DNA of 64,000 bases from Congeria kusceri (lineage: Eukaryota > Mollusca > Bivalvia > Myida > Dreissenidae), in NCBI GenBank assembly GCA_027627225.1, contig CM051029.1, forward strand, positions 17,413,656 to 17,477,655. Direction: 5' to 3'. The notes beneath the pieces were generated by a model. The model was not told the DNA's origin and searched no databases. It saw nothing but the letters and a program-made list of their open reading frames with translations. Positions 2,692 through 61,738 of this stretch are shown piece after piece. The translations under genes were made by a program, and so were the position numbers. Within the stretch, counting starts at the first letter, position 1. Each line of letters begins with the position of its first letter.

Positions 2692-2712
2692 TAATCGTGA
2701 CCATAGGGCGAA

Positions 2713-5549: not shown

Positions 5550-5836
5550 CATGTGACCTGAAATTTAGTAGAATTATGCCCCTTTTCGTAGTTAGAAATT
5601 CAGGTTAAAGTTTGCGTGCAACAACTCCATATTTCTTTATCTACTACAGATATTCAACTGAAACTTCACACATGTCTTCAGGGTCATTATGTAAGGTCAT
5701 TGACCAAGGTCGTTAACTGGTCGACCTGCAATTTAGCAAAACTTTGCCTCATTTTGTACGTAAAACGTTCAGGTTAAGGTTTGCGTGCAACAGTACAAAC
5801 ATATCGAGTGCGCTGTCCTGTGACAGCTCTTGTTAA
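5550..5836 (+). repeat. Interspersed repeat, CGACTATT family, 3' part
   Basis: Shares GAATTATGCCCCTTTTCGTA, GTTTGCGTGCAACAACT and ATTCAACTGAAACTTCACAC with the copy at 2271-2691. It ends in the family terminus GCTGTCCTGTGACAGCTCTT. The stretch 4558-5549 upstream holds a poly-G and a poly-C run but no gene. Confidence 0.7.
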
Positions 5837-5849
5837 TAATCAAGCTATT

Positions 5850-7190: not shown

Positions 7191-7470
7191 TGAAGTGTTC
7201 GGTAGCTAAGTGAATGGCTAATCTCTCAATTATCCGGCCGTTATTTTGTATGTATTATATAATTACTATAAATAAAACATGGAATTAGTGCATGTTTCTT
7301 TTGTAATAATTTTATCTTTTCTGCACATAGTATACACATTATATACTCACTTTTACAGTATCATCTTAAATTTTAAAAAATAAATTAAGGTTTCTTTTAA
7401 CATACATTTCTCTGCATTTATTTTTTGGTAACGTCATATACAATCACCAAAGTTAAATGCATTTTATGTA

Positions 7471-7876
7471 AAACAAGAGCTGTCAGAGGACAACGCTCTA
7501 TACTTTTCAAAGTGTTTCAGTTGGTACGTATTTTGGGAGTGGAAGGGGTATAAATTTGTTGAAACACAAAACTGAGTTATGGTAATTATTTCATCAAATT
7601 AATGTTTCAAGTGAAAACCTTTTGTAGTTGATAACTTGTGTAGTTTTGCAGATATAAGAGTTTTGAATATAAACTTTAATCAGAAAATCTATGTGAACTG
7701 GGTTATAGGAAACGTTGCTTCTGATGCTGGAGTTGATGACACAATATATTCCAAGTTTCCAGTGAATAACTTATGTAGTTTTGCAGTTAAAAAACTTTTA
7801 AATATAAACAAAATTTAGACATGTACACCGTCGCTATTAGGAAAGCTCACTTATTATTCGAACAGTCGAGCTAAAA
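7471..7876 (-). repeat. Interspersed repeat, CGACTATT family, reverse copy with both ends
   Basis: On the minus strand it starts TTTTTAGCTCGACTGTTCG and ends GTTGTCCTCTGACAGCTCTTG, so both family termini are present in about 406 bases. The internal sequence differs from the copies at 2.3 and 5.6 kb, suggesting a subfamily. Confidence 0.65.
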
Positions 7877-8359
7877 ATGATAAAATATCATACCTAAAAT
7901 GCACAAATAACTGATAGTGTACTTGAATCTCACAAATCACTTGTATTGTGCTGTTCGAATAAAAACACGGCCTATAAATTAATTTATTGTACAAGATAAA
8001 CCTAGCTATGCGTTCTTCTACCATTTGCTATCTTTTAAAAAATGGTAACATATTTTAACATGACGTAGCATCAAAAATAACCAACAGCCACCGTGCAGCC
8101 AACCACCAAATGACAGCTTAGATATGGTACTTTCATAACAACACTGTCCCGAATATGCCTGCTAGGGGTGGGGGGAGCATGGTCTATTGTCAGCGTAAAG
8201 TCTGATAGACCCTGTCCGGATGATAATTTTGTCCAGCAAGGAAGGCGTTTCAAATAAATTGGCGGAAGTGTTAAGCATGGTGTAACGCTGAGTTTCGAGA
8301 ACCAGATCCCATGGTTCATGGTCAAGGTCACACTAAAAGTTCAAAGGTAAAATTATGTT

Positions 8360-8540
8360 GATGAGCGTGCAAAGCCAGTCATTTGAGGGCCTATTTGGGG
8401 CAGAACTTTGGCCCCATTCTCCTGCTTAAAGAGTGTATATTTTCCCCCAATATTTACCTTTGAATTACGCTCAGAATATAGGCTTTTTTTTAAATAGACC
8501 AAAATTGAACAAAAACTAATTAAGATAGAGGAATTTTCAT
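8360..8540 (-). repeat. Dispersed repeat also found at 51.5 kb in the opposite orientation
   Basis: Contains GGGCAGAACTTTGGCCCCAT, CTCCTGCTTAA, TTGAATTACGCTCAGAAT and a run before GACCAAAATTGAACAAAAA. The reverse complement of each block appears in the same order at about 51,540-51,735. No coding content. Confidence 0.6.
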
Positions 8541-8924
8541 AAGTAATCCCAGCAGTTTTTATAAGCAGTAAATAAAATCTCACACATATAGAGAAACACT
8601 TTCTACTATATACTTGAGACTAAAAAGACATACAAACATTACATTGCCACACAATTAACATACTTTATTGTTATTGCAATTGATAAAGCAGCCAAGTTAT
8701 TTCACAAAATGTCACATACTAAGGGTTTTTCTGTCGATCAAAAAAAGTCGCCAAATCGTGAAACAAACGAGGCCACAAATTTTTTTCCATGTGGCGAAGA
8801 TCACAAGATCAGCTGTAAATGTTTTTGATTGATTAAAACTGTATCTTATCGATAACGTTCGTGTTTTGTTTACCTCTGACAGGTATGACTTACAGAATAT
8901 TGCAGTATACCAACCATATAGGAT

Positions 8925-9165
8925 GAAAAAAGGATCATATATAGACCCAAATACTGCCCGTATGCAGCCCATATTGAACCCATATAGGACCCATATGCAG
9001 CCAATATGGGTCCCATATGGGCTGCCCATATAGGCAGCCCATATGGGAACCATATAGGACCCATATTCAGCCCTTAGGGGCTGCCCATATGGGTCCCACA
9101 TGGTTCCCGGTTGCAATACCCATGTGGGTCCCATATGGGTCCCATATATTTTGCTTGCTGGGGTC
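8925..9165. repeat. CCCATATGGG palindromic minisatellite, short array
   Basis: Dense degenerate repeats of GGACCCATATGGGCTGCCCA with many self-complementary CCCATATGGG cores. The open frames on both strands are a by-product of the repeat. The array closes with CCCATATATTTTGCTTGCTG, similar to the closing sequence at 13,150 and the TTGCTTGCTGGGG at about 61,731. Confidence 0.85.
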
Positions 9166-9780
9166 ATTGTATTGTTTACATTTAATAATTTTGTTAAATA
9201 CAATAGTATAAAACGCACACTTAAAACATCGCTCAACGAAATCAGCAATCAGGAGCTGTGCTTCTTAAGTCTTTTTGAATTGCTTACAACGCGCATTCAC
9301 TGCGAAACGTATTCCGGTTAAAATTACACAGCGCAAAATTGAAGACACCTCAACATTTATAAATGGATTTGTTTAATCGAAAGGTACTGGGAATGTCCGG
9401 AAAGACAGTACTAGCAAAAGCAGTGTTAGAAAAGCATTCTTTACCGGGTTAAACCCATTAGATATATTATTAGTTTAAGAGAATAAAAACGATATATTTA
9501 TTTTTTCGCCCGAAGCATGGATTTGACGACCATATAGATAATATATTTTCAAAAAATAAAGAAAACTATATTTATCTTTACAACGAACTTAATACCGTTT
9601 CAAATATTTGTGTAGGTAATACAGTATGTCCATACAAAAATCCAATATGATTGCATAAATAGGTCATTAGTAATTAATTACGAGAATTAAGTCACCGGCA
9701 CCTTAATGGTCGCGGTCGCCTTAAGTCTGCTTTGTTCGACAATTTATTCGCCCTATGGTCACGATTACATATATATATTG

Positions 9781-12334: not shown

Positions 12335-13165
12335 AAACGAAACCTACATGGGACCCATGCAAACATTTTAACAAAACCCAACTGGGTCCCATATAGGATG
12401 CCCAAAGAGGACCCATATCGAAACCTGGATGGGTCCTAATTGGGCAGCTCATATGGGGCCAAGTGGGATTTTGCAAACACCTTTTGCATTGGTCCCATAT
12501 GGGTAGCCTATATGGGGCCCATCTTGGATCCATATAGAACCCACATGTATCCCATAATGCAACCCATTTGGGACCCATGCAGAAACAGTTTGCAAAATCC
12601 CACATGGCACCATATGGGATGCCTATAAAGGACCCATATCAAAGGCAATATTGGACCCATATGGGTGGCCGATATAGGACCCACCTTGGGTCAAAATGGG
12701 ACCCCCACAGGTCCCATATCGCAACCCATCTGGGACCCATGCAAAACAGTTTGCAAAATCCCACTTGGCCCCATATGGGTTGCCCATACTGGACCCATAT
12801 CGAAGCCCATATTGGACCTATATGGGTACCACATATAGGACTCACTTTGGGTCCACATGGAACCCACAGAGGTCCCATATCGCAACCCATCTGGGACCCA
12901 TACAAATACAGTTTGCAAAATCCAACTTGGCTACATATGGATTGCCCATACAGGACCCATATCGAAGTCCATATTGGACCTATATGGGTATCCCATATAG
13001 GACCCATCTCGGGTCCACATGGAACCCACATAGGTCCCATATCGCAACCCATCTGGGACCCATACAAATACAGTTTGCAAAATCCCATTGGCCCCATATC
13101 GTTAGCCCATACAGGCCCCATATGGTAGCTCATATTGGACCCATATGGGTCCAATGTATTTATGC
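12335..13165. repeat. CCCATATGGG minisatellite with ~165-bp higher-order unit
   Basis: Short GGACCCATAT/GGGTCCCATAT units are organised into a longer unit containing AACAGTTTGCAAAATCCCAC, GCAACCCATCTGGGACCCAT and CCCATATCG. The longer unit recurs near 12,590, 12,750, 12,910 and 13,070. Open frames up to about 200 codons run through it on both strands in Met/Gly/Pro/Ile/Trp-rich frames; they follow from the absence of stops in the repeat and are not called as genes. Confidence 0.9.
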
Positions 13166-19651: not shown

Positions 19652-21102
19652 TTATTCTTTTGAAAAACTTGTCGAAGACTGTCTAAAATATCTCTCGGCT
19701 AAGCTTTCGGAGGGGCTCTCGCTTCCATTGTCCTTTTCAAAAGCTTGTCTTGCTTTAATAGCATAATGGAGAAGTTTCTTTATATCTTCTTCTCGAATGT
19801 TTTCCACATCAAGGCCGAAATTATCCAATACATATCTCGACTGCGAATTCAGAAGATGATGATTTCGTTTGCAGGCTTGACGAAATTTGCAACCATCCTC
19901 GATGAAGTATTTGCATACGTGTAAATGTTGACATTTGTCGCTGTTTTTGCAGCCGCCTTCATTGTTATAAAATTTGCATACAATTGGAAGGGTCGTCCAG
20001 TTTCTGTTTTCAGCGTGCCTACATAGTTCGAGCACGACGCAGTCGGGAAGTTTGTCAATCTTCTCGTTTTCTAAGACTTTAGCATTTCGGGCGTGGCGAA
20101 TATCGTGTGAAAATTGACACGTTGATTGCTTGTGGCATCGACCAATCATGAAAAACTTGCAAAGGTGGAGGTCTTTGCAAACATGATCGTGTTTTAAGGT
20201 TTTGGTGTATGTTGGACAAATGTTGAGGTTAATTCTTGGTATTTCAATTCCATCTTCTTTAATTTCTATAATAGTGTCTTTAAACATTGTCTCCACGAAC
20301 GTCTTTAAACAATACATCGTTATAAATTCACGGCCTTTATAGAAGTTCTTGCAAAGATACTCAAACGAAGCGTTTGATTTCGGTTGTTTCAAGGCTATAT
20401 TTATTATATCTTTGCCTATGGATACCAAAACATTACGATTCGCTTTCTCTATGTATTCTTCCGTAATAAATCTGTGATCTTCATTTGGAGATGATGATCG
20501 TATTTCTTGTTGGTTGTTTTGCCTTCGTTTTTGTAGTTTTTCCGAACGTGACTTGCGTTTGCGATAACGTTTATCTTCGGCATTTGAAGCTGCATCGCGT
20601 TTACGTTTTCGAGAGGCATGATCGACACCGTAGGTAAGTTCAATATCTTCTGGGTATTGATTCCTCGTATCAGGTTCGTCAATGTAACTAGAAGTAGTAC
20701 TTCCTATTTCTTTTACACCCCGTTCAGTGTTTGTGTTAAACACTTCACGTCGTTCCATCTCCATTCCTAGTTCTTCAACATGCATTCGTCCTCCAACACC
20801 ACTCACATGCGTGCGGTCATCACAAGAATCGTGCGTAACACCATATCCTATTGTGCGAAAGGCTTCGTCACTAAAATGTAACCTTGCCTCCGCATATCGA
20901 CCCACCCCATCTCGTTCAGTCTGATGATTTCTCCCTGATTCCTTCTCTAAATACCTACCTTCACTATATCGATCGTATCCGTTATCAATGTCATCGACCC
21001 GTCTATTTGGAGAATAATCATCCCTATGATAACCATCGCATCGATTTACATGCAAATCTCGCTCTTCGATATGTATTTTTTCTTTTTCTCTCAGGCAATA
21101 CT
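19652..21102 (-). CDS. ZAP/PARP12-like CCCH zinc-finger protein 1, C-terminal part
   Basis: Read from about 21,102 this frame gives a charged linker, a basic KRKRD/RYRKRKSRSEK stretch, an ~80-residue helical segment (around ITEEYIEKANRNVLVSIGKD) placed like the winged-helix at the start of ZAP, then the zinc-finger block. Numbering from the TTG at 21,055, the clear fingers are C299-x7-C307-x5-C313-x3-H317, C360-x8-C369-x5-C375-x3-H379 and C381-x7-C389-x5-C395-x3-H399. A degenerate fourth lies ahead (C280, C293, H297, one Cys missing). DLHLCKFFMIGRC, SHDIRHARNAKVL and CQHLHVCKYF follow the ZAP pattern closely. There is no PARP, WWE or helicase domain. A role in RNA binding, perhaps antiviral, is inferred from family. 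The C-terminus has a short Ser-rich tail. The first in-frame codon upstream is not ATG, so this is a continuation of 21,091-22,323 in another frame. Confidence 0.75.
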
Positions 21103-22562: not shown

Positions 22563-23540
22563 ATTTTATTATGCCCCCCCCTCGAAGAATTGGGGATATA
22601 TTGCTTTGCACCTGTCCGTCCGTCGGTCGGTCGGATGGTCGGTCTATCCGTAGACCATTTCGTTTCCGCACGATATCTAGAGAACGCTTTGATCTACGAT
22701 CATGAAAGTTGGTATGCTGGTTACTTGAGTGGAAAGGAAGACGCCTATAAATTTTGAGGTCAACAGGTCAAAGGTCAAGGTCACCGTTGCTAAAAATAAA
22801 AACGGTTTCCGCTCAATAACTTGAGAACGCATCAAGATATTTTTATGAAAATTTACACATATATACCTCATATTAAGACCTCGCTTGGGAATGTATATGG
22901 GGTGAGTGGGGTCAAGGTCAAGGTTACCGTTACTAAAAATAGAAAAACGGTTTCCGCTCAATAACTTGAGAACGCATTGAGATATTTTAATGAAACTTCA
23001 TGCATAGATACCTTATATTGAGACCTCGCCTGGGATTGAATATGGGATGGCTGGGGTCAAGGTCAAGGTCACCGTTACTAAAAATAGAAAAAACGGTTTC
23101 AGCACAATAACTTTAGAACGCATCGATATATTTTAATGAAACTTCATACATATATACCTTATATCGAGACCTCGCTTGGGATTGCATATGGGGTGGGTAG
23201 GGTCAAGGTCACCGTTGCTAAAAATAGAAAAAAGGTTTCCAATTAGTTACTTGAGAACGAATTGATATATTGTAATGAAACTTCATACAAAGATACCTTA
23301 TATTGGGACCTCTTTTGGGATTTCATATGGGGTGGGTGGGGTCAAGGTCAAGGTCACCATTACTAAAAATAGAAAAACGGTTTCCGCTCAATAACTTGAG
23401 AACGCATCGAGATATTTTAATGAAACTTCTTACACAGATACCATATATCGAAATCTCGCTTGGCATTGCATATTAAAAAAGTTTCTTAACCATTGCACAT
23501 ATTCACAACTTGGCTGCAAGTCGGGGGGCATACATGTTTT
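22563..23540 (+). repeat. ~150-bp tandem repeat element with GGGGGCAT ends
   Basis: Opens ATTATGCCCCCCCCTCGAAG and closes GTCGGGGGGCATACATGTTT, so the ends are complementary. Five to six copies of a unit of about 145-150 bases lie between, each with GGTCAAGGTCAAGGTCACCG, AAAACGGTTTCCGCTCAATA, CTTGAGAACGCATCGAGATA and TTATATTGAGACCTCGCTTG. CGGTCGGTCGG microsatellite sits at the left. No coding function. Confidence 0.85.
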
Positions 23541-25617: not shown

Positions 25618-28611
25618 ATGACTGACAAACTAAAAATTATATCTTTAAATTGTAGAGGTCTAAATGGTTTCAAAAAACGTGTAAAGGTTTTCAACTTTCT
25701 GCAAGAGCTCAAGTCTAATATTTACTGCTTGCAAGATACACATTTTACAGAAGACATGTACAACGTCATCCATGCTGAATGGGATTGTGAACTTTTTTTA
25801 AGCTATGGTACATCACAATCTAGGGGTGCTGCAATTTTTATAGCAAAAAACTTTGAATATAAAGTTCATAATACTGTCCCCGATGAAAATGGAAATTTTG
25901 TAGCGATTGACATAACCGTCACGGGAACACGGTTTACCATATTATGTATTTATGGTCCTAATTGTGACACTCCGTCTTTTTACACAAATATTTTTAAATT
26001 AATAGAGGACATTGGAAATGACTCTTTAATAATGTGTGGAGATTTCAACCTGGTATTAAATACAGAACTTGACTATAGTAATTATAAAAATATCAATAAT
26101 CCTAAGGCTCGGAATATACTGTTGGAAAATATAAATAATTACAATCTCATTGATCCTTTCCGCGAAAAATATCCGTCTTTAAAGAGGTACACGTGGCGAA
26201 AATCTAATCCATTGCAACAAGCTAGACTTGATTTTTTTCTAATGTCTTCAAATATGTTTGCAAGTTTTGAGTCAACGTCAATACAACCTAGCCTACAGTC
26301 TGATCACTCATTGATATTGTTAGAATTGGCACTTTCCAATTTTTCGCACGTATCAGGCTTATGGAAGCATAACAATTCACTTTTATATGACTTAAACTAT
26401 GTAAATGAAATTAATCACAAGATTGATCAGATAAAAGAACAATATGCTGTTCCAGTGTATAATTTGGTACAATTAGGGACTATTCCTGATAGTGAATTAC
26501 ATCTCACAATAAGTGATCAACTCTTTCTTGAAACTCTTCTTATGGAGATAAGGGGGAAATCTATCTCTTATGGTTCATATAAAAAGAAATTAAACACCTT
26601 AAAAGAAAAAGAATTATTGGAAAAAATAAATACTTTAGAACAAAACCTCTCACAGGAAAACATTGAGGACTTACAAAAGTTAAAACAAGAACTTGAAATA
26701 ATACACGAGCATAAGTTAAAGGGATATTTAACACGAGCAAAAACAAAATGGATTATAGAGGGTGAAAAGCCATCTCGCTATTTTTGTAATTTAGAAAAAC
26801 AATGTGTTACAAGCAAAACTATTTACCAACTGCAAGATGATGATGGGGTTGTTTTAACTAATCAAAAAGAGATTTTAAAGAAAACTGCATCATTTTATGA
26901 AAATCTTTATTGTAAGAAAAGCGAATGTAATGATTCGGATTTTTTTAATTTTGTTCAAAATGTTAATTGTCCAAAACTAAGTGACAAGGAAGCACAATGT
27001 CTTGAAGGTAATATTACATTATCTGAAGCATCCATTGTATTAAAAAAAATGTCTAACAACAAAAGCCCAGGTAGTTCTGGATTTACTGCCGAATTTTATA
27101 AAATGTTCTGGAATAGAATTGGTACTTTTGTGGTAAGATCTCTTAATGAATCTTTTGCCCTGGGGAATTTATCCGTAACTCAAACACACGGAATCATTAT
27201 ATGTATCCCAAAAGGCGATAAATCAAGACTTATCATAACAAACTGGAGGCCAATTACTCTTCTAAATACCGTTTATAAAATAGGCTCAGGTGTTATTGCA
27301 AACAGAATGAAACATTGCATGAATAAACTTATACACAATGACCAAACTGGCTTTATCAAAGGACGCTATATTGGAGAAAATACTCGACTGATTTTTGATA
27401 TTATGCACATTATAGAAGAACAGGATATTCCTGGTCTGCTGCTACTAATTGACTTTGAGAAAGCATTCGATTCGTTATCTTGGTCCTTTGTGCAGAAAAC
27501 ACTTTCATTTTTTAACTTTGGACCTGACATTAAACGTTGGTTTGACATTCTTTATAAGGATGCAAAATCAGCTATAATTCAATGTGGCTACCTGTCTAAT
27601 TTTTTTCCCATTCAGCGTGGATGCCGCCAGGGTGACCCACTTTCCTGTTACATTTTTATTCTATGTGCTGAAGTACTATCTCTTAAAATTAGAAATAACA
27701 CACATATAAAAGGTATTACTCTTAAAGAAGTAGAACATAAACTTACACAATTTGCAGATGATACAACTATTATATTGGATGGAACAGAACAATCCTTACA
27801 TGAAACACTGCATACTTTAAGCAAATTTTCTGCCATTTCTGGATTGAGCGTTAATTTTGACAAAACCAAAGTAGTATGGATTGGAAAAAAAAAGTTCAGC
27901 TCAGAAAGCATAAAAACAAAATGGAAACTCCAGTGGAACCAAGATGGTTTTCAAATGTTAGGTATACATTTTCATGTTGATTTACCAAAGATCATACAAC
28001 TTAACTATAGTGACAGGCTTACCAAATTGGAGAATATACTTACAAGTTGGAAAAAAAGATTTTTGACACCTATTGGCAAAATAACTGTAATAAAAACTCT
28101 TTTGATTTCTTTGTTCAACCACTTGTTTATATCACTTCCAAACCCACCACATTCTTTTATTAAACACTTAAATACCATTTTTACTAACTACATATGGAAT
28201 GGGCAGAGTAGAATCAAATTATGCGTTTTAACCAACGAATACTGTGATGGTGGCTTAAAAATGATAAACATTGAAGCTTTTATCCAATCTTTGAAATTAA
28301 CTTGGCTTAAACGCGCTTACAGCACAGCTGGGAAATGGCTGAGTATAGCAAATATATATGTTGATTTTAGCAAACTTTTCAATTGTGGAAATCATTATCC
28401 TAAAATATTATCAAATATGATTACAAATCCCTTTTGGAAAGATGTTTTACTCAGTCTGGTACATTTCCAAAAGCAATTGCCTTTTAATGCAAAAGATATT
28501 CTGCATCAGCCACTGTTTTATAATGAAAACCTTTCCATAGGAAATACAAGTATATTTTTCAAAGCCTGGTATATGTATGTGACCTATTTGATAAAAATGG
28601 AGACTTCTTAA
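25618..28611 (+). CDS. LINE ORF2: endonuclease and reverse transcriptase
   Basis: ATG at 25,618 starts MTDKLKIISLNCRGLNGFKK, the canonical beginning of an APE-type endonuclease. QDTHF, GDFN (D142) and the SDH motif (D229-H230) are all present, so the nuclease looks intact. The reverse transcriptase follows: NWRPITLLNTVYKI, LIDFEKAFDSL (first Asp D612), GCRQGDPLSCYIF and QFADDTTI (F712-D715). The enzyme would nick target DNA and prime reverse transcription there. The frame stops at TAA 28,609-28,611 after a run (MYVTYLIKMETS) that no longer resembles the family. A two-base frame change just before it, around TGGTATATG at 28,568-28,577, returns the sequence to the downstream frame. The near-complete frame suggests a young copy. 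Confidence 0.9.
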   Translation: MTDKLKIISLNCRGLNGFKKRVKVFNFLQELKSNIYCLQDTHFTEDMYNVIHAEWDCELFLSYGTSQSRGAAIFIAKNFEYKVHNTVPDENGNFVAIDITVTGTRFTILCIYGPNCDTPSFYTNIFKLIEDIGNDSLIMCGDFNLVLNTELDYSNYKNINNPKARNILLENINNYNLIDPFREKYPSLKRYTWRKSNPLQQARLDFFLMSSNMFASFESTSIQPSLQSDHSLILLELALSNFSHVSGLWKHNNSLLYDLNYVNEINHKIDQIKEQYAVPVYNLVQLGTIPDSELHLTISDQLFLETLLMEIRGKSISYGSYKKKLNTLKEKELLEKINTLEQNLSQENIEDLQKLKQELEIIHEHKLKGYLTRAKTKWIIEGEKPSRYFCNLEKQCVTSKTIYQLQDDDGVVLTNQKEILKKTASFYENLYCKKSECNDSDFFNFVQNVNCPKLSDKEAQCLEGNITLSEASIVLKKMSNNKSPGSSGFTAEFYKMFWNRIGTFVVRSLNESFALGNLSVTQTHGIIICIPKGDKSRLIITNWRPITLLNTVYKIGSGVIANRMKHCMNKLIHNDQTGFIKGRYIGENTRLIFDIMHIIEEQDIPGLLLLIDFEKAFDSLSWSFVQKTLSFFNFGPDIKRWFDILYKDAKSAIIQCGYLSNFFPIQRGCRQGDPLSCYIFILCAEVLSLKIRNNTHIKGITLKEVEHKLTQFADDTTIILDGTEQSLHETLHTLSKFSAISGLSVNFDKTKVVWIGKKKFSSESIKTKWKLQWNQDGFQMLGIHFHVDLPKIIQLNYSDRLTKLENILTSWKKRFLTPIGKITVIKTLLISLFNHLFISLPNPPHSFIKHLNTIFTNYIWNGQSRIKLCVLTNEYCDGGLKMINIEAFIQSLKLTWLKRAYSTAGKWLSIANIYVDFSKLFNCGNHYPKILSNMITNPFWKDVLLSLVHFQKQLPFNAKDILHQPLFYNENLSIGNTSIFFKAWYMYVTYLIKMETS

Positions 28612-28613
28612 AC

Positions 28614-29420
28614 ATGCATATAATCAATGAAAACTATAACCTTAAAATTGACTTCCTCTTGTATAACGGTATTAAAAAGGCTATCTTTGCAATGTTTAAG
28701 AAATTAAATGTTGAAGGAAATTACCAACAGTATGCAAACATACAAAGGCCTTTCATACCTCCTTCACACAGAACACTATTTATGCCTGTTTCCGGAGCAA
28801 AGCCAATGTATACAATATTAAATAAGACCGAAAAATGCTTACCAATAAAACAAAAATGGTCAGGTAAATTAAATATTGAAATTACTGACAATGTTTGGAA
28901 GGATATTTTTCGTGAACCATTTTCTATAACTAAAGATGTGAAAATGCAATGGTTCCAATACAGAATTATACACAGAATACTTGGAACAAATAGTCTACTT
29001 TTCAAAATGAATCTGAAAGACTCTCCCAAATGTACCTTTTGCAAAAGTTGTGAGGAAACGATTGAAGATTTTTTCTGGGAATGTCCTATTTCAAAAATTA
29101 TTATTGAAAACCTTTTCCCCAAACAGTTGTTTCCATTTTGTAACATATATACTTTTCTTCTGGGATATATAGAAAAGAATAGTGATGCTGTCAACAATGC
29201 TTTTATTTATGCCAAGTTTTATCTGTATAAATGCAAGATGTCTTCAACACAACCAACGGTTGAAAATGGAAGACACTTTATGAAATCACAATATGACAGT
29301 CTTAAAGATGTAGCAATATATGAAAAGAAAGTTGACAGTTTACTTGCTTGGAAAGATATTTTGAATGTCAATGTATCACAGAACCACCTCTTTTTGCAGT
29401 TGACTGAAAACACTTCATAG
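28614..29420 (+). pseudogene. LINE ORF2 C-terminal part, out of frame
   Basis: This 268-codon frame continues the LINE protein; it is open upstream of its first ATG back to about 28,570, overlapping the end of the main frame. It carries a zf-RVT-type segment (KWSGKLNIEITDNVWKDIF, then CTFCKSCEETIEDFFWECP) in which the usual His before the last Cys appears to be replaced. The break is consistent with a 2-bp TA gain in the TATATG run; I have not restored the frame. It is part of the element, not a host gene. Confidence 0.8.
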
Positions 29421-37568: not shown

Positions 37569-39041
37569 TTATAATTCACTCGACAATTGGGGAAATACCA
37601 GTGGAATATATCTCAAACAAGGTTTTCTACATCGCAAAGGCATTTGCTGTTGTTGTTCTGGTGGTGGTGGTGTTGGTGGTGGTTCTTTGTGTTCTTGTTG
37701 TTGTAGTTGTTGTTGAAAATATCTCGTACCGCGCAAAGGCTGTTGCTGTTGTTGCTGTGGTGGTTCGTGTTGTCCTTGATGTTTAAACTGTTGTAGAGCA
37801 TGTCCATCAGGTCTGAAGCTAGGGCCAAGGCTCTTATCAAAATCCCGTCTTTGTTTCACAGCATCGCGGAGAACTCTTTGTATTACGTTCTCGCCAATAT
37901 GTTTAGCATCAATTCCGTAAGTTTCCAAAACTTTTCTCGTCTGCTGATCCCTAACAAGCGAGTGGTTTCGTCTGCATTTTGGAGCAAATTTGCAGTCGCC
38001 ATCGACATAATATTTGCAAACATGTAAATGTTGACAGTTTTCTTTCTTGCACGTTTCTTCGTTGTTATAAAATTTGCATACAAAAGGAAGGGTGGTAAAA
38101 TTCCTGTTGTCTAGATGTCGACATATTTCCAGTACTTCTCGGTCTGGAAAGTTGTAGATTTTGTTACTTTTTAAAACATTTTTATTGTGGCGTCGGCGAA
38201 GGTTATGTGAAAATTTGCATTCAAATTCTTTTGATTTGCATTTTCCGATCAGGAAAAACTTACAGATGTGAAGATCTGTACATCTGTGCTTGTCGGCCGT
38301 ATTTGCTGTATAAGTTGGACAGATTTTTACCTTGATCGATGGTATTTTTTTATTACCAGACATAGATGATGACCTTCTTACTGGTTCGTAGTGTTCACTT
38401 CGTTTAAGTCGCTTTTTCGAACGTAACATGTGTTTTCGACTTCGTTCACGTTCGCTGTCGTGGTATGTATCCCTTGCACGTTTTCGGCTTGCACGCATGA
38501 TCCCAACAACTGACATTGAACCCTCCTCTCCATACGTTGAACTGCAGGATGCCTCATTTGTAGGGAAACCGTCGCAGCAATTGCTGAAATTGCTATATTG
38601 CATTTCATTGTTTCTTTGTTCCAGTATCGTGTTTCTATGACTCTTTATTTGTCGTTCTCCCCTATCGGTATCATTATCCCATATTTCACCATCTGATGAG
38701 AATTCGCCGTCTCTTTCTGGGCTTACACTTTCGTATCTGTCTCTTTCTGGCCTAGATCTTTCTTGACCTTCTCGTTCAGAGCTTGATCGGCCATGTTCTC
38801 TTCGTTCCGTGCGTGATCTTCCTTTTCCGCCCGGTTTCGAGCTTGATTTTTCTACTAGTTTTCCGCCTGGTTCCGGGCTTGATCTTCCGTTTCGATCTCG
38901 TTCTGAGCTTGAACTTCTGCCTCGGTCTCCGTCGTAGCTTAGACTTCTCTTTCGATCTCGTTCAGCGCTTGAACCTCTGCCTAGATCTTCACTATACCTA
39001 TCATGACTATACCTTCTATAAATTTGACGTCCTTGAGCCAT
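37569..39041 (-). CDS. ZAP/PARP12-like CCCH zinc-finger protein 2
   Basis: ATG at 39,041 lies 9 bases after a splice acceptor (GATCCTTTTCAG on the minus strand), as in the paralogue at 22.3 kb. The 490-residue protein starts with about 120 residues of RS/RE/SP-rich sequence (GRSSSSERDRNGRSSPEPGG and similar), which resembles SR-type splicing-factor tails. A basic patch follows (SRKRARDTYHDSERERSRKH). The fingers are C260-x7-C268-x6-C275-x3-H279, C322-x8-C331-x4-C336-x3-H340 and C342-x7-C350-x5-C356-x3-H360, preceded by a degenerate finger (C241, C254, H258). The spacing and the LHICKFFLIGKC / CQHLHVCKYYVDGDC motifs match the ZAP N-terminal RNA-binding block. Unlike paralogue 1 it lacks the winged-helix-like segment and ends in a polyGln/Pro tail. 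There is no PARP domain. RNA binding is likely; an antiviral role is only inference. Confidence 0.85.
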   Translation of the reverse strand: MAQGRQIYRRYSHDRYSEDLGRGSSAERDRKRSLSYDGDRGRSSSSERDRNGRSSPEPGGKLVEKSSSKPGGKGRSRTERREHGRSSSEREGQERSRPERDRYESVSPERDGEFSSDGEIWDNDTDRGERQIKSHRNTILEQRNNEMQYSNFSNCCDGFPTNEASCSSTYGEEGSMSVVGIMRASRKRARDTYHDSERERSRKHMLRSKKRLKRSEHYEPVRRSSSMSGNKKIPSIKVKICPTYTANTADKHRCTDLHICKFFLIGKCKSKEFECKFSHNLRRRHNKNVLKSNKIYNFPDREVLEICRHLDNRNFTTLPFVCKFYNNEETCKKENCQHLHVCKYYVDGDCKFAPKCRRNHSLVRDQQTRKVLETYGIDAKHIGENVIQRVLRDAVKQRRDFDKSLGPSFRPDGHALQQFKHQGQHEPPQQQQQQPLRGTRYFQQQLQQQEHKEPPPTPPPPEQQQQMPLRCRKPCLRYIPLVFPQLSSEL

Positions 39042-39049
39042 TTTTTAAA

Positions 39050-53056: not shown

Positions 53057-53367
53057 GGTGCCAGGAAGACATCCGGATCCCTGCCTTCGTAGACCCAAAC
53101 CACGTCTACAGTTTCCACCTCAACAGAAGCGGGATACGTACCGCCCGTAAGATCTTGTGCGTCATCGAACACATGTGCCCCGACATCATCAACAGTCCTT
53201 TGCTGTACTCGATAAGTTGTCTGTTTCTTCATTACATGGATGCTTCACAGTGTTATAGCTGCGTCTATTCAATGCTAAGGGAGAGAGACTCAAAGTATTT
53301 GCCAACCACGAAGGTGTCCTATGACGCTTCGAAGCTGGTGATACGAGACCTTGCAAAGAAGTATGCG
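53057..53367 (+). CDS. TBC1D24/skywalker-like Rab-GAP, second coding exon
   Basis: Acceptor CTGATGCTTTCAG and donor GTAAGT at 53,368 bound 311 bases. The phase-1 end of the previous exon plus two bases gives Gly, so the join reads FPKGCQEDIRIPAFVD. The segment then reads VYSFHLNRSGIRTARKILCV, CPDIINSPLLYSISCLFLHY and SYDASKLVIRDLAKKYA. This is the TBC1D24 pattern of P-x-FVD, Y-x-LN-x-x-G, R-KILC, PDI-x-x-CP-x-L and LLHY. The exon ends in phase 0. The rest of the TBC domain and any TLDc domain were not found downstream in this window, so either the next intron exceeds 10 kb or the gene is broken. Confidence 0.8.
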
Positions 53368-53754: not shown

Positions 53755-54755
53755 ACACAGGCCGATATGGGGCCCATATGGGCTTGCTAGTTAAAAACCC
53801 ACATGGTCTATCTTGATGGGACCCATATGGGCTTGCTATTTGTGACCCATCTAGACCTGCTATTTGGGGGCCAATATGGACTTTCTTGCTGGGGCTCATA
53901 TGGGCTTGCTGTTGATGACCCATCTAGGCCTGCTTGTTGGGGGCCCATATTACCTTTCTTACTGAGACCCATATGGGCTTGCTTTTTGGGGACGGACATG
54001 AGCTTTCTTGATGAGACTCGTATGGATTTGCTTGTGTGAACCCATGTGGGCTTTCTTGCTGGGACCCATTTGAGCTTGTTGGCCTGGGACCCATCTGAGA
54101 CTGATATGGGCATGACATGTATGTGGGACTTACATGGGGCCTATGTAGTTAATAAGCCCAGGCATATCACATATCAGGCCCACATGGGCTGGCTTGCCAG
54201 GACCTATATGTGCTTAATTGCTGGTTTTTTTTTGGGGACCCATATAGGGTTGCTTGAATGAGATCCATACGGGCTTGATTGCTGGGGACCCATGTGGGCT
54301 TGCTCTTTGTGACCCATATGGGCTTGTTTGTTGGGGACCCATATGAGCCTTCTTGCTGGGGCCCATATGGGCTTGATTCTTTGGAACCCCATGAGGGCTC
54401 TCTTGCTGGGACCTATTTGGGCTTTTATGTTGTTGATCCATATGGACATATTGTTCGGGACCCATATAGGCTTTCTTGCTGGGACCCATATGGGCTTGCT
54501 TGCCTGGGGACCTATATGGGCTTTCTTGCTAGGACCCATATGGGCTTTCTTGTAGTGCGCCCATTTTGGGCTTTCTTTCTGGGACCCAACTGGTTCTGAT
54601 ATGGGCAAGACCACACAAATGGGTCTCACATGCAGCCCATGTTTTTACATTGGACCAGATCAAGCCCTTTCCCAGCCCAAATGGGATGACTTTCTAGGAC
54701 CCATATGTGCATACTTGCTGGGAACCCATGTGGGCTTGTTGCTTGGTCTGATATG
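53755..54755. repeat. CCCATATGGGCTTGCT minisatellite, left part of split array
   Basis: About 30 degenerate units of GGGACCCATATGGGCTTGCTTGCT-like sequence, typical spacing 28-35 bases. It ends at CTGATATG, exactly where the CAGGGTTGGCA-ended insertion begins. Frames on both strands are repeat-derived. Confidence 0.9.
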
Positions 54756-55854
54756 CAGGGTTGGCACGAATTACCCACCCCCGGGGTTTCCTGGCGGGTT
54801 TGTACCGGTTTTTCCGGCCCCGGTCAATTCTCTAAAGTGGGTAATACTGGGCAATGCTGGACAATACTATTTTTTCTTCAGTTAATTTGCAGTTGTAATT
54901 GTTTTTCTAAATCTAAATGCTCAGTTAACTTATGTCATTAAGAAAATGACTTGTTTAGTTTTGCAGATCTAGTATATGCATAGTTACAGTATTGTAAGTG
55001 CCTGCACATATCCACTGGTTCATTCATTCATTTTTTATGGCAATGCTTATCATATATTTTCTATAATGTTTGTGAAATGATTCTGCTTGATATTGAAATA
55101 TGTCTAAACTTATTTAAATTATTCAGCCTTCTTTTTTTCTTGCATTGAACTATTCTTTTTTTGTGTAAACAATAAAACTAAGGGAGGCCTTCTCTGTCTG
55201 GACAATAATGCCAGCCTGGTCAATATTATTATGATCTGATATTGGGCAATACTGGGGATAATTGACAAATCACTTATCTTCTATTTTCATTACTTTCATT
55301 TTTTTCACTTTAATAGCAGGATAATGATAATGATGAAGCAAAGAATAAAAATAATTATTTTAATACTGATGCACAATTAACAGCAGGAATCAGTCACTTA
55401 AGGTGCCAATCAATGCATGTTTTCACGGTTTGGAGAAGGCCCCTACTAGACATGGGCCTTTGCCTGACCCCTCATTGAGATAGGTCTAATGTTTATTCAA
55501 GGGGTCCAGTTTAATTGTTTTTTTAGCACTTGCATCTGTCAATTCAATCAATGTTTGTGTTTGTTTAAGAGGGTGTACATATTGTGGATGGGTCATTAAT
55601 GATATCACCATATTATGTCATTAATTTAATGTACTGCATGGGGCTGCAATAGGGTCAGAAAGCCGCAGCGCATACTAAAATGCGGACCAATCTGCGGACG
55701 TAAATTGTGCGTTCGTTATGGTAAAGGTCGTGTTTTGAATTGTGGACAAAGAAAATCATTAAAATCTTAATTTTACAAGTTATATCTGCAAACAGGATAC
55801 ATTTGCAGTGTTTGATCGGATACAAAAACATAACAATGTGTGAAATTGTGCAAT

Positions 55855-56864
55855 ATGGGCAATAAACGCAATGAAAAAAGGAAAAATCGAAATAGTAGTG
55901 GTAACGGCGGGGACACCAGCAGAAAGTTATTGAAACATAGAGGCCCGTCCGACGAATTGGATATCCCAGTAAGTGATGTTTTAAGCCAAACTAACGCTGT
56001 ATTATACACTGACAAATGTTACAATTGTAACAATTCTTCTGACTGTGTTTGTGTGTTTTATCACGAGACCAATTGCAATAGTGCTTCAGTAACGACACAC
56101 AAAATGGCGGAAAACGTACAACAAACAAGTGTTGGAACTAAAGAGCCAACAATTAAAGATGTATTGAGCTGTCTCCGTGCTATAAGTTCTCGTATGGATT
56201 CAATGGAGAAAAAGCTAAATATTTTAGGTCAGCTTGAACAGAAAGTGTGTGGAATTGAGAAAGAACTTAAAGGTATTTGGTTAGCGTTAGAGGACAGGTC
56301 GAAGAGAGTAGAGGAGAGGATAGCAAAGTTAGAAGATAAAGTAGATGGTGCAGACATTGGTGCAGCTATGCTCGCCAGCAAAGTCGAGGAGCTGGAGAAG
56401 GCTAGAGATAGTATTCAAGACGACATGGCTTATATCAAGTCCCAGTCAATGAGGAACAATCTCATTTTTACAATCATCCCAGAGGACAATACTAACGGCA
56501 GCGAAACTGCGGAAGTGACTGAGCGGAAACTCCGGCTACATTTTCAAGAGGCATTGAAGATATCCAACGAAGTTGCTGACAGCGTACGCTTCGAACGTGT
56601 ACATAGATCGCCAGGCCAGCCTATTAACGGTAAAGTGTGAAATATTGTCGCAAAATTCACGTATTTCAAGACCGCGAATTCGTGCGCAGACAGTGGAAGA
56701 ACCTGAGTGGTTCAGCATTTAGAATGTATGAACAATTTCCACCAGAAGTACTAGCAAAGAGAAGAAAGCTTGTTCCCAAAATGAAATCAGCCAGAGACCA
56801 AGGAAAACGGGCGTGGCTAGCATATGACACGCTTTACATTGATGGCCAAGCAGTCAGGGACTAG
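55855..56864 (+). pseudogene. LINE ORF1 (coiled-coil RNA-binding protein), frame-broken
   Basis: The first ATG is at 55,855 (MGNKRNEKRKNRNSSGNGGD). A Cys-rich stretch (CYNCNNSSDCVC) follows, then a heptad-like coiled coil (roughly from LSCLRAISSRMDSMEKKLNI to VEELEKARDSIQ) and an RRM-like core (SMRNNLIFTIIPED). The frame stops at 56,638-56,640. The C-terminal domain (FQDREFVRRQWKN, FPPEVLAKRRKLVPKMKSAR) continues in another frame to 56,864, so a small indel lies near 56,630. Known LINE ORF1 proteins bind RNA and assemble the RNP. Confidence 0.8.
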
Positions 56865-56879
56865 TTTCACGCCGGAGGT

Positions 56880-59800
56880 GAACTGTCTGTACTGGCTTGG
56901 AATGTGAACGGTTTGACAAACGATAAAAAATCGAGTGCTGATTTTGTAAATATTATCACTAGTCACGATATTTGCTTTTTGTATGAATCGTGGACAAACT
57001 CTTCCAGTAACATTTCATTAAGTGGTTTTGTTTCACATCATTTTTATCGAAAATTTCAAAATAGGAATGCACGCAGATGCAGTGGCAGTATTGTGTTGTA
57101 TTATAAAGAAAATTTAGCTGATGGTGTTAAAATAGTAAAAAACCACCATGATACAATTATTTGGCTAAAATTGGATAGGAACTTTTTGCACACCGAAGAG
57201 GATATATATTTATGTGGTATATACTTGTGGGGTGAAGACTCACCTGCGTACAATATATGTGATGTTGACTTATTTGAAATTTTAGAAAATGATATTTTTA
57301 TGTATGATAATATGGGTGCTGTTTACATTGTTGGAGATCTAAATAGCAGAGTAGGCAATAAAATGATTATATTTTAAATGATACTTTATATACAGTTATT
57401 GACGATGTGGATTACATTCCAGATAGTACACCTGTGAGGGCCTCAATTGACAAAATTTGTAATGGTCATGGAGTAAAATTGTTGGATTTATGTAAGTCGT
57501 CATGTGTTCGCATTGTCAATAGTCGTATAGGAAACACAAATCAGTATACCTATCTTTCTCATAACGGTACCTCTGTTATTGATTATTTGTTGTGTAACGA
57601 ACGTAACTTTCCATTGATAACGATTTTAGCATTGGTCAGTTCAATGAATGGAGTGACCATGCACCGTTACACTTGTCACTTCTTTGTTGTAATTTGAAAC
57701 AAAACGGTCATAGCTACGCCGAGACTAAATTTCAGTGGAATGAAACTTATAAGCAAAAATTTAGATCAGGGATTATTGCTAATTTATCTGTTTTGAATAA
57801 TATTGTTGATTGTATAGGCTCTGATAATAGACAATCTGTTAATAATGCAATCAACAGCTTTACTGACGTACTGCGAAAGGTCGCAGATCCATTATTTGCC
57901 AAACAATGAACATTCAAAAATGTTCATGGTTTTGAAACAGATTCTTGTTTAAAACATGCAGATTGGTTTGACTTAGACTGTGTAAACGCACGAAATAATT
58001 ACCTTGAATCGTTGAGGTTGTTTAACTGCTGTAAAACCGATACAAATCGTATATACTTGTGTGAACAAAAATCATTTTATAAAAAATTAATTTGTATGAA
58101 GAAAAATAACTGTCACAAAAAGAAAATGGTTGAAATAGAAGGTTTAAAGAAAAAAAAGCCAAAAGAATTTTGGAAATATTTTAAAAGAAGGAATTCAAAA
58201 TGTGAAAATAATATACCACTGGAGCAATTTAAAGAATATTTTGAGAACATAAGCAATGATTTGTTTATTTGTTACAATGATGAGGCTGAGCAGTTTTGTA
58301 CAGAAAATGATTTTGATACTGAAAATAATACTTTTTCTGAGTTAGACCAACCGATCACTTATACTGAAATTATAGCTGCTGCTAAATCTTTGAAACGTTA
58401 TAAAGCTTATGGCAATGATTGTCTTTTAAACGAGTACTTTATTGAAAGTATCGATATTTTAGCATCTCACCTATGTGATTTATTCAATTGTATTTTAAAT
58501 TCGGGTTACTTTCCTGATAAGTGGTCAGAACGAGTTATAATACCGTTACATAAAAAGGGAAGTCAGTGCGATGTAAATAATTATAGGGGTATTACGTTGG
58601 TGAGTTGTTTGTCTAAGTTATTCACAACAGTCTTGAATAAACGAATTGAAGCTTTTTGTGAAGAAAATAACACTATTTCGGATGCTCAATTTGGATTTCG
58701 TAAAGGAAGGTCTACAATTGATGCTATTTTTATTCTGATGTCACTAGTACAGCATTATCTAATTGGAAATAAGAGACTATATGTTATTTTTGTAGACATG
58801 GCTAAATGCTTTGATACTATTTATAGAAATGGATTATGGTTAAAAATGTATAAATGTGGAATTCAAGGTAAACTTCTTAGGATTATACGCAATATGTATC
58901 AAAAAGTCAAATCTTGTGTAAAGTCATGTTCTAGTTATTCAGAATACTTTCAATATGCAGTCGGTTTGCGTCAAGGGGAGGTAATGTCCCCTCTATTTTG
59001 TTTTCACTTTTTGTTGAAGATCTTGAGTTATTTTTACAAAATGGTATTAATCCTGGTATTTCCATAGATGATGTAGTTTTAGTATTGTTGTTATTTGCTG
59101 ATGACATGGCCATTGTAGGCAAAACGCCTGAAGAAGTACAAATCCATCTAGATAATTTATTGTCATATTGTAATGCATGGGGGCTACAAGTAAATACATC
59201 GAAAACAAAAATCATGGTATTTCGAAAACGAGGTGGGTTACTAAACACCGAGCGCTGGACATACAATGGCCAATTCATCGAATCTGTTAATTATTTCACC
59301 TATTTGGGTACTGTTTTTAGTTACACTGGTAATTTTACACATCAGGAAGAATACCTTTCTGGTAAAGCCCTAAAGGCCATGAACTTGTTATTGTGTAAAT
59401 GTAAGGAATTCGATCTGAGTCCTAAAACCTTTTGTCAACTATTTGATGCATTTGTTACATCTATATTGAACTATTCCTGTGAAATTTGGGGCTTTAAAAA
59501 AGCGAAACATATTGAAAGAATTCATCTTAAGTTTTGTAAAATATTATTAAAAGTTCGAACTAATACTTGTAATGCATGCGTCTATGGTGAACTTGGAAGA
59601 TATCCTTTGTATATCAACATTTTTGTTAAAATTTTAAAATTTTGGCTTAACATTGTTAAGACTGAAAATATTATATTACAATCTGTATATAACCAAGCTG
59701 TTAGAGATAGTTACAATGGCTGTAAAAATTGGGTCTCGAATGTTAGACAGTTATTAAATGATTATGGTTTTTCATATGTTTTTGAAAACATTCAAAGTGT

Positions 59801-60293
59801 CAATACAGAATTGTTCATAAATGAATTTAAAAGTAGAATTTTCGATTCTTTTAAACAAGAATGGTATGCAAATTTGGAAAATAGCTCTGTGTTATATATC
59901 TATAGACATGTTAAAAACACTTTAGATTATGAAAATTACCTAGATATATTACCAAGATCCTTAAAACCTTATTTTTTTAAGCTTAGAGTGAATGGACTAC
60001 CACTCAGAATACAAACGGGAAGATATAGCCAAAACAGAATAGTACGTGATGAAAGACATTGTTTATGTTGCAATACTCAAGACATTGAAGATGAATATCA
60101 TTTTATTTGTGTATGTAAATGTTACTCTGACATAAGAAAGAAATATATACAAACTTTTTACTACAAACATCCATCAGTATATAAGTATTTACAATTACTT
60201 AATACAAGAGATAAAACCAGATTAATACAAATATCTTTGTATGTTAAGGAAGCACTTATTCTAAGAAACTCACTTTTAAATATGGAACGGTAG
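56880..60293 (+). pseudogene. LINE ORF2 (endonuclease-reverse transcriptase), several frame breaks
   Basis: The endonuclease part (LSVLAWNVNGLTNDKK, VYIVGDLNSRVG) stops at 57,377 and resumes in shifted frames at 57,407-57,697 (GTSVIDYLLC) and 57,673-57,909. The reverse transcriptase runs from 58,012 (NNYRGITLVSCLSKLF, VDMAKCFDT, GLRQGEVMSPL) to a break near 58,990-59,020, then continues in another frame with LLFADDMAIVG (59,088-59,120), GLQVNTSKTKIMVFRKRG and a C-terminal CLCCNTQDIEDEYHFIC knuckle, ending at 60,293. At least four indels or stops make it non-functional. RT motif style suggests the Jockey/CR1/L2 side of LINEs, but I would not fix a clade. Confidence 0.85.
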
Positions 60294-60619
60294 GTAAATT
60301 AAAACGATCATCCTCCGTTATAAGTACATACTTAACGTTGCTGTCATAATTGTGCACATACACTGTACTCGTATGTTAAAAATATACCAACTATATGATA
60401 ATAACATATTGTTTCCCCTATGTTTTGGTCACGTATACTTTATATATATGTATACTTATATTCATTTATTGTAGACGATGTACCTTGTACAAGTCTTAAT
60501 AAAATATCTGTTCTGTTCTGTTCTGTTCTTGTTGCAACATGATATTGACTAAAATATTTTATAACATACAAATATGTTAGAATTGTCAAATTTTTGTTTC
60601 ATAAACATAATTCTGTTAC

Positions 60620-61310
60620 ATTATACACAAGTATATATATATGACAAATAAAATCAATGTGAGTAAAACACAAGTATATATATATGACAAATAAAATCTA
60701 TGTGAGTAAAACACAAATATATATATGACAAATAAAATCTATGTGAGTAAAACACAAATATATATATGACAAATAAAATCTATGTGAGTAAAACACAAGT
60801 ACAAATAAAATCTATGTGAGTAAAACACAAGCATATATATGACAAATAAAATATATGTGAGTAAAACACAAGTATATATATGACAAATCAAATCTATGTG
60901 AGTAAAACACGTATATATATGACAAATAAAATCTATGTGAGTCAAACACAAGTATATATATGACAAATAAAATCTATGTGAGTCAAACACAAGTATATAT
61001 ATGACAAATAAAATCTATGTGAGTAAAACACAAGTATATATATGACAAATAAACTCTTATGTGAGTCAAACACAAGTATATATATGACAAATAAAATCTA
61101 TGTGAGTAAAACACAAGTATATATATGACAAATAAAATCTATGTGAGTAAAACACAAGTATATGTATGACAAATAAAATCTATGTGAGTAAAACACAAGT
61201 ATATATATGACAAATAAAATCTATGTGAGTAAAACACAAGTATATATATGACAAATAAAATCTATGTGAGTCAAACACAAGTATATATATGACAAATAAA
61301 ATCTAAACCA
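60620..61310 (+). repeat. 41-bp minisatellite inside the hAT-like element
   Basis: About 16 units of GACAAATAAAATCTATGTGA then GTAAAACACAAGTATATATA T. Variants are AGTCAAAC for AGTAAAAC and shortened TATATA runs. The minus-strand open frame is repeat-derived. It lies just left of the right terminus of the element. Confidence 0.95.
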
Positions 61311-61620
61311 CAAGTAATACTCAGTATTGTCGAGACTGACCAAAAAATCCAACTTAAATTTTGTGAAAAGGAAATGAAATTATCAATATGTTTACACATT
61401 TAATAGAAATAAACAAGGTAACTTACAGTATATAATTGTTAATCGATATGTGTTTATAATGTAGCAACTCAGTATTAGTATGCAATGATAATTGTGCAAT
61501 ATCTTTTTTCCCCAGTATTGCCCACTATTGCCCAGTAATACCCTGTAAAACCCGGTTTTTCCCAGTATTACCCGCCCGGGCGGGTCAATACTATAAAACC
61601 CGGGTTTTATGCCAACCCTG

Positions 61621-61738
61621 CTGATATGGGCTCGATATTGGCAGAAAAATATATGGGACACACATGGGGCTCATATGGTATATTTGCCCAGGTATAGCCC
61701 ATTTTGGGCCCGTATGGGCTTGCTTGCTGGGGAACTGT
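61621..61738. repeat. CCCATATGGG minisatellite, right remnant of split array
   Basis: Resumes with CTGATATGGGCTCGATATTG and ends GTATGGGCTTGCTTGCTGGG, the same units as 53,755-54,755. Together they are one array interrupted by the insertion. Confidence 0.85.

What the first reader, a model, noticed from the sequence alone, without database searches (positions are those of the whole stretch)
54748..61628. hAT-like insertion with exact 8-bp target duplication splits a minisatellite and carries a LINE and a second minisatellite
The termini begin CAGGGTTGGCA in inverted orientation and are flanked by CTGATATG on both sides. The array to the left and right is the same CCCATATGGG family. This gives a clear order: array first, then the hAT-like element, then the LINE inside it; expansion of the 41-bp array near the right end is undated. 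No transposase is visible, and the subterminal GGGTAATACTGGGCAAT repeats could be transposase binding sites.
Basis: partly seen in the sequence, partly recalled or inferred. Interest (0 to 1): 0.75.

Follow-up and report, generated by a model that had tools for sequence, protein, structure and literature searches.

The report
Jumping gene inside a minisatellite array
A cut-and-paste DNA transposon without its own transposase, carrying a broken LINE retrotransposon and a short tandem repeat, landed inside an older tandem-repeat array of what is probably a bivalve genome; it is an ordinary nested insertion with unusually regular transposon ends.

Summary
Element 54756-61620 (6,865 bp) ends in an exact 11-bp inverted CAGGGTTGGCA, flanked by an exact CTGATATG duplication; it is the only such 8+11-bp pair in the window (0.02 expected per simulated window). 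Both flanks belong to one CCCATATGGG-type array. New here: frames read inward from the terminus match database ORFs whose similarity begins at CAGGG after different flanks, two significant and one weak, so the terminus recurs elsewhere. No transposase domain was found in 10 of 31 ORFs scanned. The nested LINE is broken and has no detectable target duplication, so it may have entered before or after the element landed here. hAT membership rests on ends and duplication length. The own genome could not be searched: copy number, an allele without the insertion and an autonomous partner are untested. New member of a known kind; modest interest.

The parts
53768..54747 (.). Left part of the CCCATATGGG-type degenerate minisatellite array (periods of about 24 and 49 bp)
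   Evidence: TRF rows within 53768-54588; the rest to 54747 from the sequence and array matches
54748..54755 (+). Left copy of the 8-bp target site duplication, CTGATATG
54756..61620 (.). Non-autonomous hAT-like element, 6,865 bp including nested LINE and 41-bp array
   Evidence: terminus recurs elsewhere
54756..54766 (+). Left 11-bp terminal inverted repeat CAGGGTTGGCA
54837..54866 (+). Left subterminal 10-bp tandem repeats: GTGGGTAATA CTGGGCAATG CTGGACAATA
   Evidence: lag-10 identity 0.75
55239..55261 (+). Inner left copy of the subterminal motif, complementary to 61506-61528
   Evidence: inverted repeat I2, 91%; motif match
55640..60530 (+). Nested LINE; 5' boundary approximate (judged from the sequence, about 55,640), 3' end at a CTGTT-repeat tail ending near 60,530
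   Evidence: ORFs, Pfam, tail read; no target duplication found
55855..56864 (+). LINE ORF1 (coiled-coil-like), apparently broken by one frameshift near 56,640
   Evidence: ORF layout; coiled-coil-type Pfam matches, all below cut-off
56865..60293 (+). LINE ORF2: endonuclease (Exo_endo_phos) and reverse transcriptase (RVT_1); apparent frameshifts within 57,362-57,377, within 57,607-57,697 and near 58,998, and an in-frame stop at 57,907-57,909
   Evidence: only the frameshift near 58,998 was compared with relatives
60625..61305 (.). 41-bp tandem array, 16.8 copies, 93% matches, inside the right part of the element
61506..61575 (-). Right subterminal 10-bp tandem repeats, 7 consecutive units with GGG at positions 3-5 in each, mirror image of the left end
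   Evidence: lag-10 identity 0.70, second-best locus among 56,701 windows, after a T-rich tract at 37192
61546..61609 (.). Imperfect palindrome adjoining the right terminus
   Evidence: DNA fold -20.1 kcal/mol versus shuffle mean -9.5, z -5.1, 0 of 200; the left end shows none (z -0.06, 87 of 200)
61610..61620 (-). Right 11-bp terminal inverted repeat
61621..61628 (+). Right copy of the 8-bp target site duplication, CTGATATG
61629..61736 (.). Right remnant of the same minisatellite array (end approximate)
   Evidence: joined-flank alignments; right half alone is weaker than the left

Best explanation
A non-autonomous cut-and-paste element of the hAT type, mobilised in trans by a transposase encoded elsewhere, inserted into one unit of an existing CCCATATGGG minisatellite and duplicated 8 bp of target. 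Its ends carry the 11-bp terminal repeat plus mirror-image clusters of 10-bp tandem repeats, one per helical turn, which most likely are the sites where the transposase's DNA-binding domains line up on one face of the helix. A LINE inserted into the element by target-primed reverse transcription, before or after the element reached this site, and a 41-bp array expanded near its right end. Shown here: ends, duplication, array on both sides, recurrence of one terminus elsewhere, broken LINE, no transposase domain in the ORFs scanned. Inferred: hAT superfamily, mobilisation in trans, binding-site role, LINE mechanism (general knowledge of LINEs).
For: Exact 8-bp duplication directly outside an exact 11-bp inverted repeat, once in the window against 0.02 expected. 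Array sequence continues across the joined flanks. The frame RVGIKPGFYSIDPPGRVILGK read inward from the right terminus matches P0121 (E 3.8e-8 from the window alone), P0122 (E 1.6e-16 with a profile that includes P0121) and weakly P0123 (E 5.8); in each the likeness begins at the R-V-G that starts at CAGGG, after residues that look unrelated (judged by eye). Left and right ends can be aligned in the same frame (46% identity, no significance computed). All 4 matches of TACTGGGCAATA with at most 1 mismatch in the 64-kb window lie in this element, plus strand on the left and minus on the right. hAT is among the richest DNA transposon superfamilies of bivalves, whereas Zisupton, Novosib and Merlin were found almost only in cephalopods with automatic libraries, although a curated bivalve library holds three Merlin (passages of PMC10294476).
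Against: No transposase links the ends to hAT. The duplication fits the Hermes preference nTnnnnAn at position 2 but not at position 7, where T stands for A (preference from a passage of PMC10368747). The right flank alone is a weak match to the two paralogous array sites, and array alignment does not single out the 8-bp length. The host genome was not searchable, so no second copy in the same genome, no allele without the insertion and no autonomous relative were seen. Scans of two DNA collections for the right terminus found no convincing copy. The database ORFs show one end only.
Confidence: 0.86

Rival explanations
1. Composite transposition: the LINE was already inside the element when the element jumped, so the retrotransposon was carried to this array as cargo of a DNA transposon. 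(This is a variant of the best explanation, not exclusive of it.)
For: The LINE is broken (apparently 4 frameshifts and 1 stop) while the element's duplication is exact; the LINE has no detectable duplication of its own. Nothing seen excludes it.
Against: Eight bases are too few to date anything. Much of the LINE is still open: one frameshift in 58126-60290 against P0001. At 6.9 kb the element is longer than the 2.5-5 kb given for hAT elements (passage of PMC3942097), and long cargo usually lowers mobility (recalled).
Confidence: 0.15
2. The element belongs to another superfamily that makes duplications of about 8 bp (P, Merlin, Zisupton, Novosib; list recalled).
For: No transposase is present, so the superfamily rests on ends only; the duplication fits the hAT target preference at one of two positions.
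Against: CAGGG termini fit published hAT (Buster) TIRs such as CAGGGCTTCTTAAAC and CAGGGGTGGCCAACCT (passages of PMC4298943); Merlin, Zisupton and Novosib are rare in bivalves according to PMC10294476. P elements were not checked.
Confidence: 0.1
3. Chance: the array's repetitive sequence and an unrelated inverted repeat only mimic an insertion.
For: CTGATATG occurs 3 more times in the array; the window holds more short repeat-plus-inverted-repeat pairs than Markov windows; array alignment does not single out the 8-bp length.
Against: P of an 8-mer shared by two random array positions is 0.0013; 0.02 chance pairs per window at 11 bp, none in 200 windows beginning CA[GT]; the same terminus occurs next to different sequence in other contigs.
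Confidence: 0.02

Closest known systems
Non-autonomous hAT elements (Buster NA elements of PMC4298943; BuT2-derived MITEs of PMC3942097)
   Same: Short TIRs (CAGGG-type in Buster), 8-bp duplication, no transposase; conserved terminal regions are reported for Buster elements (passages)
   Different: Much longer here because of a nested LINE and an internal 41-bp array; relation to any named family not established
Hermes (hAT) transposon ends
   Same: Clustered subterminal repeats next to the TIR at both ends; the transposase's BED domains bind them at the left end (passages of PMC10368747)
   Different: Different motif (about CTGGGCAATA in strict 10-bp tandem, against a short AAGT-type motif); binding not tested
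Bivalve LINEs with endonuclease and RT
   Same: The seven listed relatives named from Dreissena, Mya, Mercenaria and Mactra are 46-64% identical to the last ORF
   Different: This copy is broken; its clade was not resolved
Class II elements with internal tandem arrays (such as Pearl/CvA and MITE-linked satellites listed in PMC9659126)
   Same: Non-autonomous DNA element with a tandem array inside (passages)
   Different: No sequence comparison was made

Membership tests
hAT superfamily | 8-bp target site duplication | tested here: met
   CTGATATG exact on both sides; the length rests on the exact repeat, array alignment is neutral
hAT superfamily | Short TIR (10-25 bp), CAGGG-type start | tested here: met
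   CAGGGTTGGCA, 11 bp exact; size range from PMC3942097 passage, start compared with Buster TIRs
hAT superfamily | hAT transposase | tested here: not met
   10 of the 31 ORFs listed for the non-LINE parts gave no Pfam match below E 0.05. Expected of a non-autonomous copy; it bars the claim of an autonomous hAT element and leaves superfamily membership unproven
hAT superfamily | Target preference nTnnnnAn (Hermes) | tested here: inconclusive
   CTGATATG fits at position 2, not at position 7; one site only (preference)
hAT superfamily | Other copies with the same precise ends | tested here: inconclusive
   Two significant and one weak database ORF begin similarity at CAGGG after different flanks, but one end only and no duplication visible; DNA collection scans gave no convincing copy
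hAT superfamily | Autonomous partner with the same ends | not tested
   The genome search did not complete (21 identical requests)
Non-LTR retrotransposon (LINE) | AP-type endonuclease plus reverse transcriptase | tested here: met
   PF03372 E 3.9e-7, PF00078 E 1.5e-20 and 5.5e-11; LINE-1 ORF2p in the PDB E 8.4e-20
Non-LTR retrotransposon (LINE) | Target site duplication flanking the insert | tested here: inconclusive
   Best candidate no better than shuffles, 38 of 60 reach it; exact repeats of at most 8 bp

The most novel reading that the evidence does not exclude
A hAT-type element whose transposase reads a helically phased ladder of 10-bp repeats (one binding site per turn, up to seven in a row) and which has moved a LINE as cargo, so that a class I element spreads by class II transposition.
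Probability: 0.1. Interest if true: 0.5.

Novelty: new member of a known kind. Interest (0 to 1): 0.22.

Why it matters
It gives a well-delimited transposon family with defined ends, 10-bp subterminal repeats and two significant further occurrences of one terminus, which makes the family easy to trace. The flanks show that the CCCATATGGG array is older than the insertion. If LINE-bearing copies exist elsewhere, it would be a testable case of a retrotransposon carried by a DNA transposon. Otherwise it is ordinary genome archaeology.

Tried and rejected
A LINE target duplication was sought between 55250-55830 and the region after the tail: exact repeats of at most 8 bp, best inexact candidate no better than shuffles (38 of 60 reach it). 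None is claimed. Aligning joined flanks with 0, 1 or 2 copies of CTGATATG to the array scored 64, 72 and 68, but random 8-mers averaged 69.8 (maximum 75), so this does not prove the duplication length.

Scans of public DNA collections: the right terminus in viral contigs 0 and in genome contigs 1, in a bacterium (Litorivivens, L001), judged chance after reading 251 bases around it. The long subterminal motif in viral contigs 0, the 17-base motif 1 (L002, 1,757 bases, read whole, no transposon ends seen, judged chance). LINE relatives in viral contigs: one stretch matched a pattern, none was confirmed. The paper search for GGGTTGGCA with 'hat' anywhere held 317 papers and listed 10; I opened one of them at that word, where it lies in mariner TIRs. 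A Zisupton search was seen as a listing only. Rfam: no match in the window. ORF1 piece against the PDB: none. P0121 against Pfam: none. No other copy of either terminus in the window.

My first thought that an exact duplication plus a broken LINE points to composite transposition was dropped as proof: eight bases cannot date it.

On checking the draft I mended: motif matches at two mismatches inside the element are 7 of 14, not 8; the right repeat cluster is 61506-61575; ORF1 starts at 55855; 'other copies with precise ends' is now called inconclusive.
Full report
What is there. The element lies at 54756-61620, 6,865 bp. It starts and ends with CAGGGTTGGCA in inverted orientation (11 bp exact; the 12th base differs), and CTGATATG stands directly outside both ends. 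A scan for exact 8-bp direct repeats directly outside exact inverted repeats, 60-12,000 bp apart, finds one case with an 11-bp inverted repeat; 200 first-order Markov windows averaged 0.02 and gave none that begins CA[GT]. The control is lenient: with shorter inverted repeats the real window exceeds it (8 bp: 4 against 0.78; 6 bp: 26 against 10.6).

The target. Both flanks belong to a degenerate CCCATATGGG-type array. Joining the flanks with one CTGATATG gives a sequence that aligns through the junction to 54040-54197 (73% over 159 columns) and 54511-54698 (66% over 188). Scored separately against the two array sites that hold CTGATATGGGC (54101, 54596), the left half clearly beats 300 shuffles and the right half beats their mean but not their maximum; further right, 61706-61736 matches array units at up to 88%. 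Random 8-mers in place of the real one align about as well, so the 8-bp length rests on the exact repeat at both ends; two random array positions share an 8-mer with probability 0.0013. The array predates the insertion. Upstream, 53062-53367 gives a sub-threshold RabGAP-TBC match (E 3.5e-4, 20.7 bits against a cut-off of 25.2), so an intron is possible but not shown.

Recurrence of the terminus. The window's own genome could not be searched: the genome search did not answer in 21 identical requests. As a substitute, the frame that reads inward from the right end (RVGIKPGFYSIDPPGRVILGK...; R is the AGG of CAGGG) was used as a probe against the protein database, where spurious ORFs on contigs can reveal non-coding DNA. 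The one candidate matched: P0121, E 3.8e-8, 79% identity over 77% of the 43-residue probe; in a pairwise comparison 27 of 37. A profile of the right end, P0121 and the left end then gave 3 hits at E up to 10 among 8 candidates: P0121 (in the profile), P0122 (E 1.6e-16) and P0123 (E 5.8, not significant alone). In all three the likeness begins at R-V-G, that is at CAGGG, and the residues before it look unrelated to the window and to each other (by eye). This is what copies of one mobile element at different sites look like. It shows one end only; host and DNA of these contigs were not available. Pattern scans of two DNA collections gave no convincing copy.

The ends. Identity at lag 10 is 0.70 for 61506-61575; of 56,701 70-bp windows outside ten listed array stretches, 20 score higher, and by the list of separate loci these belong to a T-rich tract at 37192. 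All 4 matches to TACTGGGCAATA with at most one mismatch in the window lie in this element, plus strand on the left and minus on the right; at two mismatches 7 of 14 lie in it, against 6.3 expected for the whole window. The right end also holds a palindrome (61546-61609) that folds better than all 200 shuffles; the left end does not. In Hermes, subterminal repeats are bound by the transposase's BED domains at the left end (passages of PMC10368747). By analogy the 10-bp units are the likely binding sites, and a spacing of about one helical turn would put them on one face. This is inference.

What it lacks. Ten of the 31 ORFs listed for the non-LINE parts gave no Pfam match below E 0.05; the other 21 were not scanned. 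The element is therefore taken as non-autonomous, and hAT membership rests on TIR and duplication. Published Buster TIRs (CAGGGCTTCTTAAAC, CAGGGGTGGCCAACCT; passages of PMC4298943) are of the same type. The duplication fits the nTnnnnAn preference at one of two positions.

The LINE. About 55,640 to 60,530 on the plus strand: an ORF1 with coiled-coil-like matches below cut-off, an endonuclease (PF03372, E 3.9e-7) and a reverse transcriptase (PF00078, E 1.5e-20), ending in a CTGTT-repeat tail. Of 488 relatives of its last ORF, 120 were listed; eight of these carry an organism name, seven from bivalves (Dreissena three, Mya one, Mercenaria two, Mactra one) and one from a bacterial bin, Candidatus Thiodiazotropha taylori, a clam symbiont (recalled). 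The host is thus probably a bivalve; this rests on the LINE alone. By ORF layout one frameshift breaks ORF1, and three frameshifts and one stop break ORF2; of these only the frameshift near 58,998 was compared with relatives, 30 of the 120. No LINE duplication was found, so the 5' boundary is approximate. The clade was not resolved.

Order of events. Array, then element: supported by the flanks. LINE into element: supported by nesting. Whether the LINE entered here or at an earlier site is open. The 41-bp array (60625-61305, 16.8 copies) is undated.

Verdict. A real, well-delimited, non-autonomous hAT-like insertion with a nested LINE, of a known kind. The phased end repeats and the recurrence of the terminus are the new details. 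Papers: PMC3942097, PMC10368747, PMC4298943, PMC10294476, PMC4678618 and PMC9659126 were seen as passages found by term, not read whole; the others as listings. Searches for hAT with subterminal repeats and molluscs (1 paper) and for retrotransposons nested in hAT or DNA transposons (5 papers) listed no title on this element; these are narrow searches of one library.

Noticed in passing
25618-29420: A second LINE: a 997-aa ORF with endonuclease and RT (PF00078 E 2.3e-32), then an overlapping ORF with a zf-RVT match (E 2.6e-7); about 25-30% identical to relatives of the nested LINE.
   Followed up: partly
2691-9768: Inverted pair ATAATCGTGACCATAGGGCGAA / GTAATCGTGACCATAGGGCGAA about 7.1 kb apart, next to AT microsatellites; perhaps two ends of another element or two inverted copies.
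   Followed up: no
8945-9147 and 12488-13150: Two further CCCATATGGG-type arrays, one with a 162-bp longer unit, so this minisatellite family occurs at three places in the window.
   Followed up: no
19652-21100 and 37569-39044 (minus strand): Two ORFs with PARP12-like CCCH zinc fingers (E 3.8e-11 and 5.3e-16), perhaps a local gene family.
   Followed up: partly
22766-23473: 145-bp tandem array beginning GGTCAAGGTCAAGGTCACC, 4.9 copies.
   Followed up: no
61546-61609: Strong palindrome at the right end only; the two ends of the element are structurally asymmetric.
   Followed up: partly
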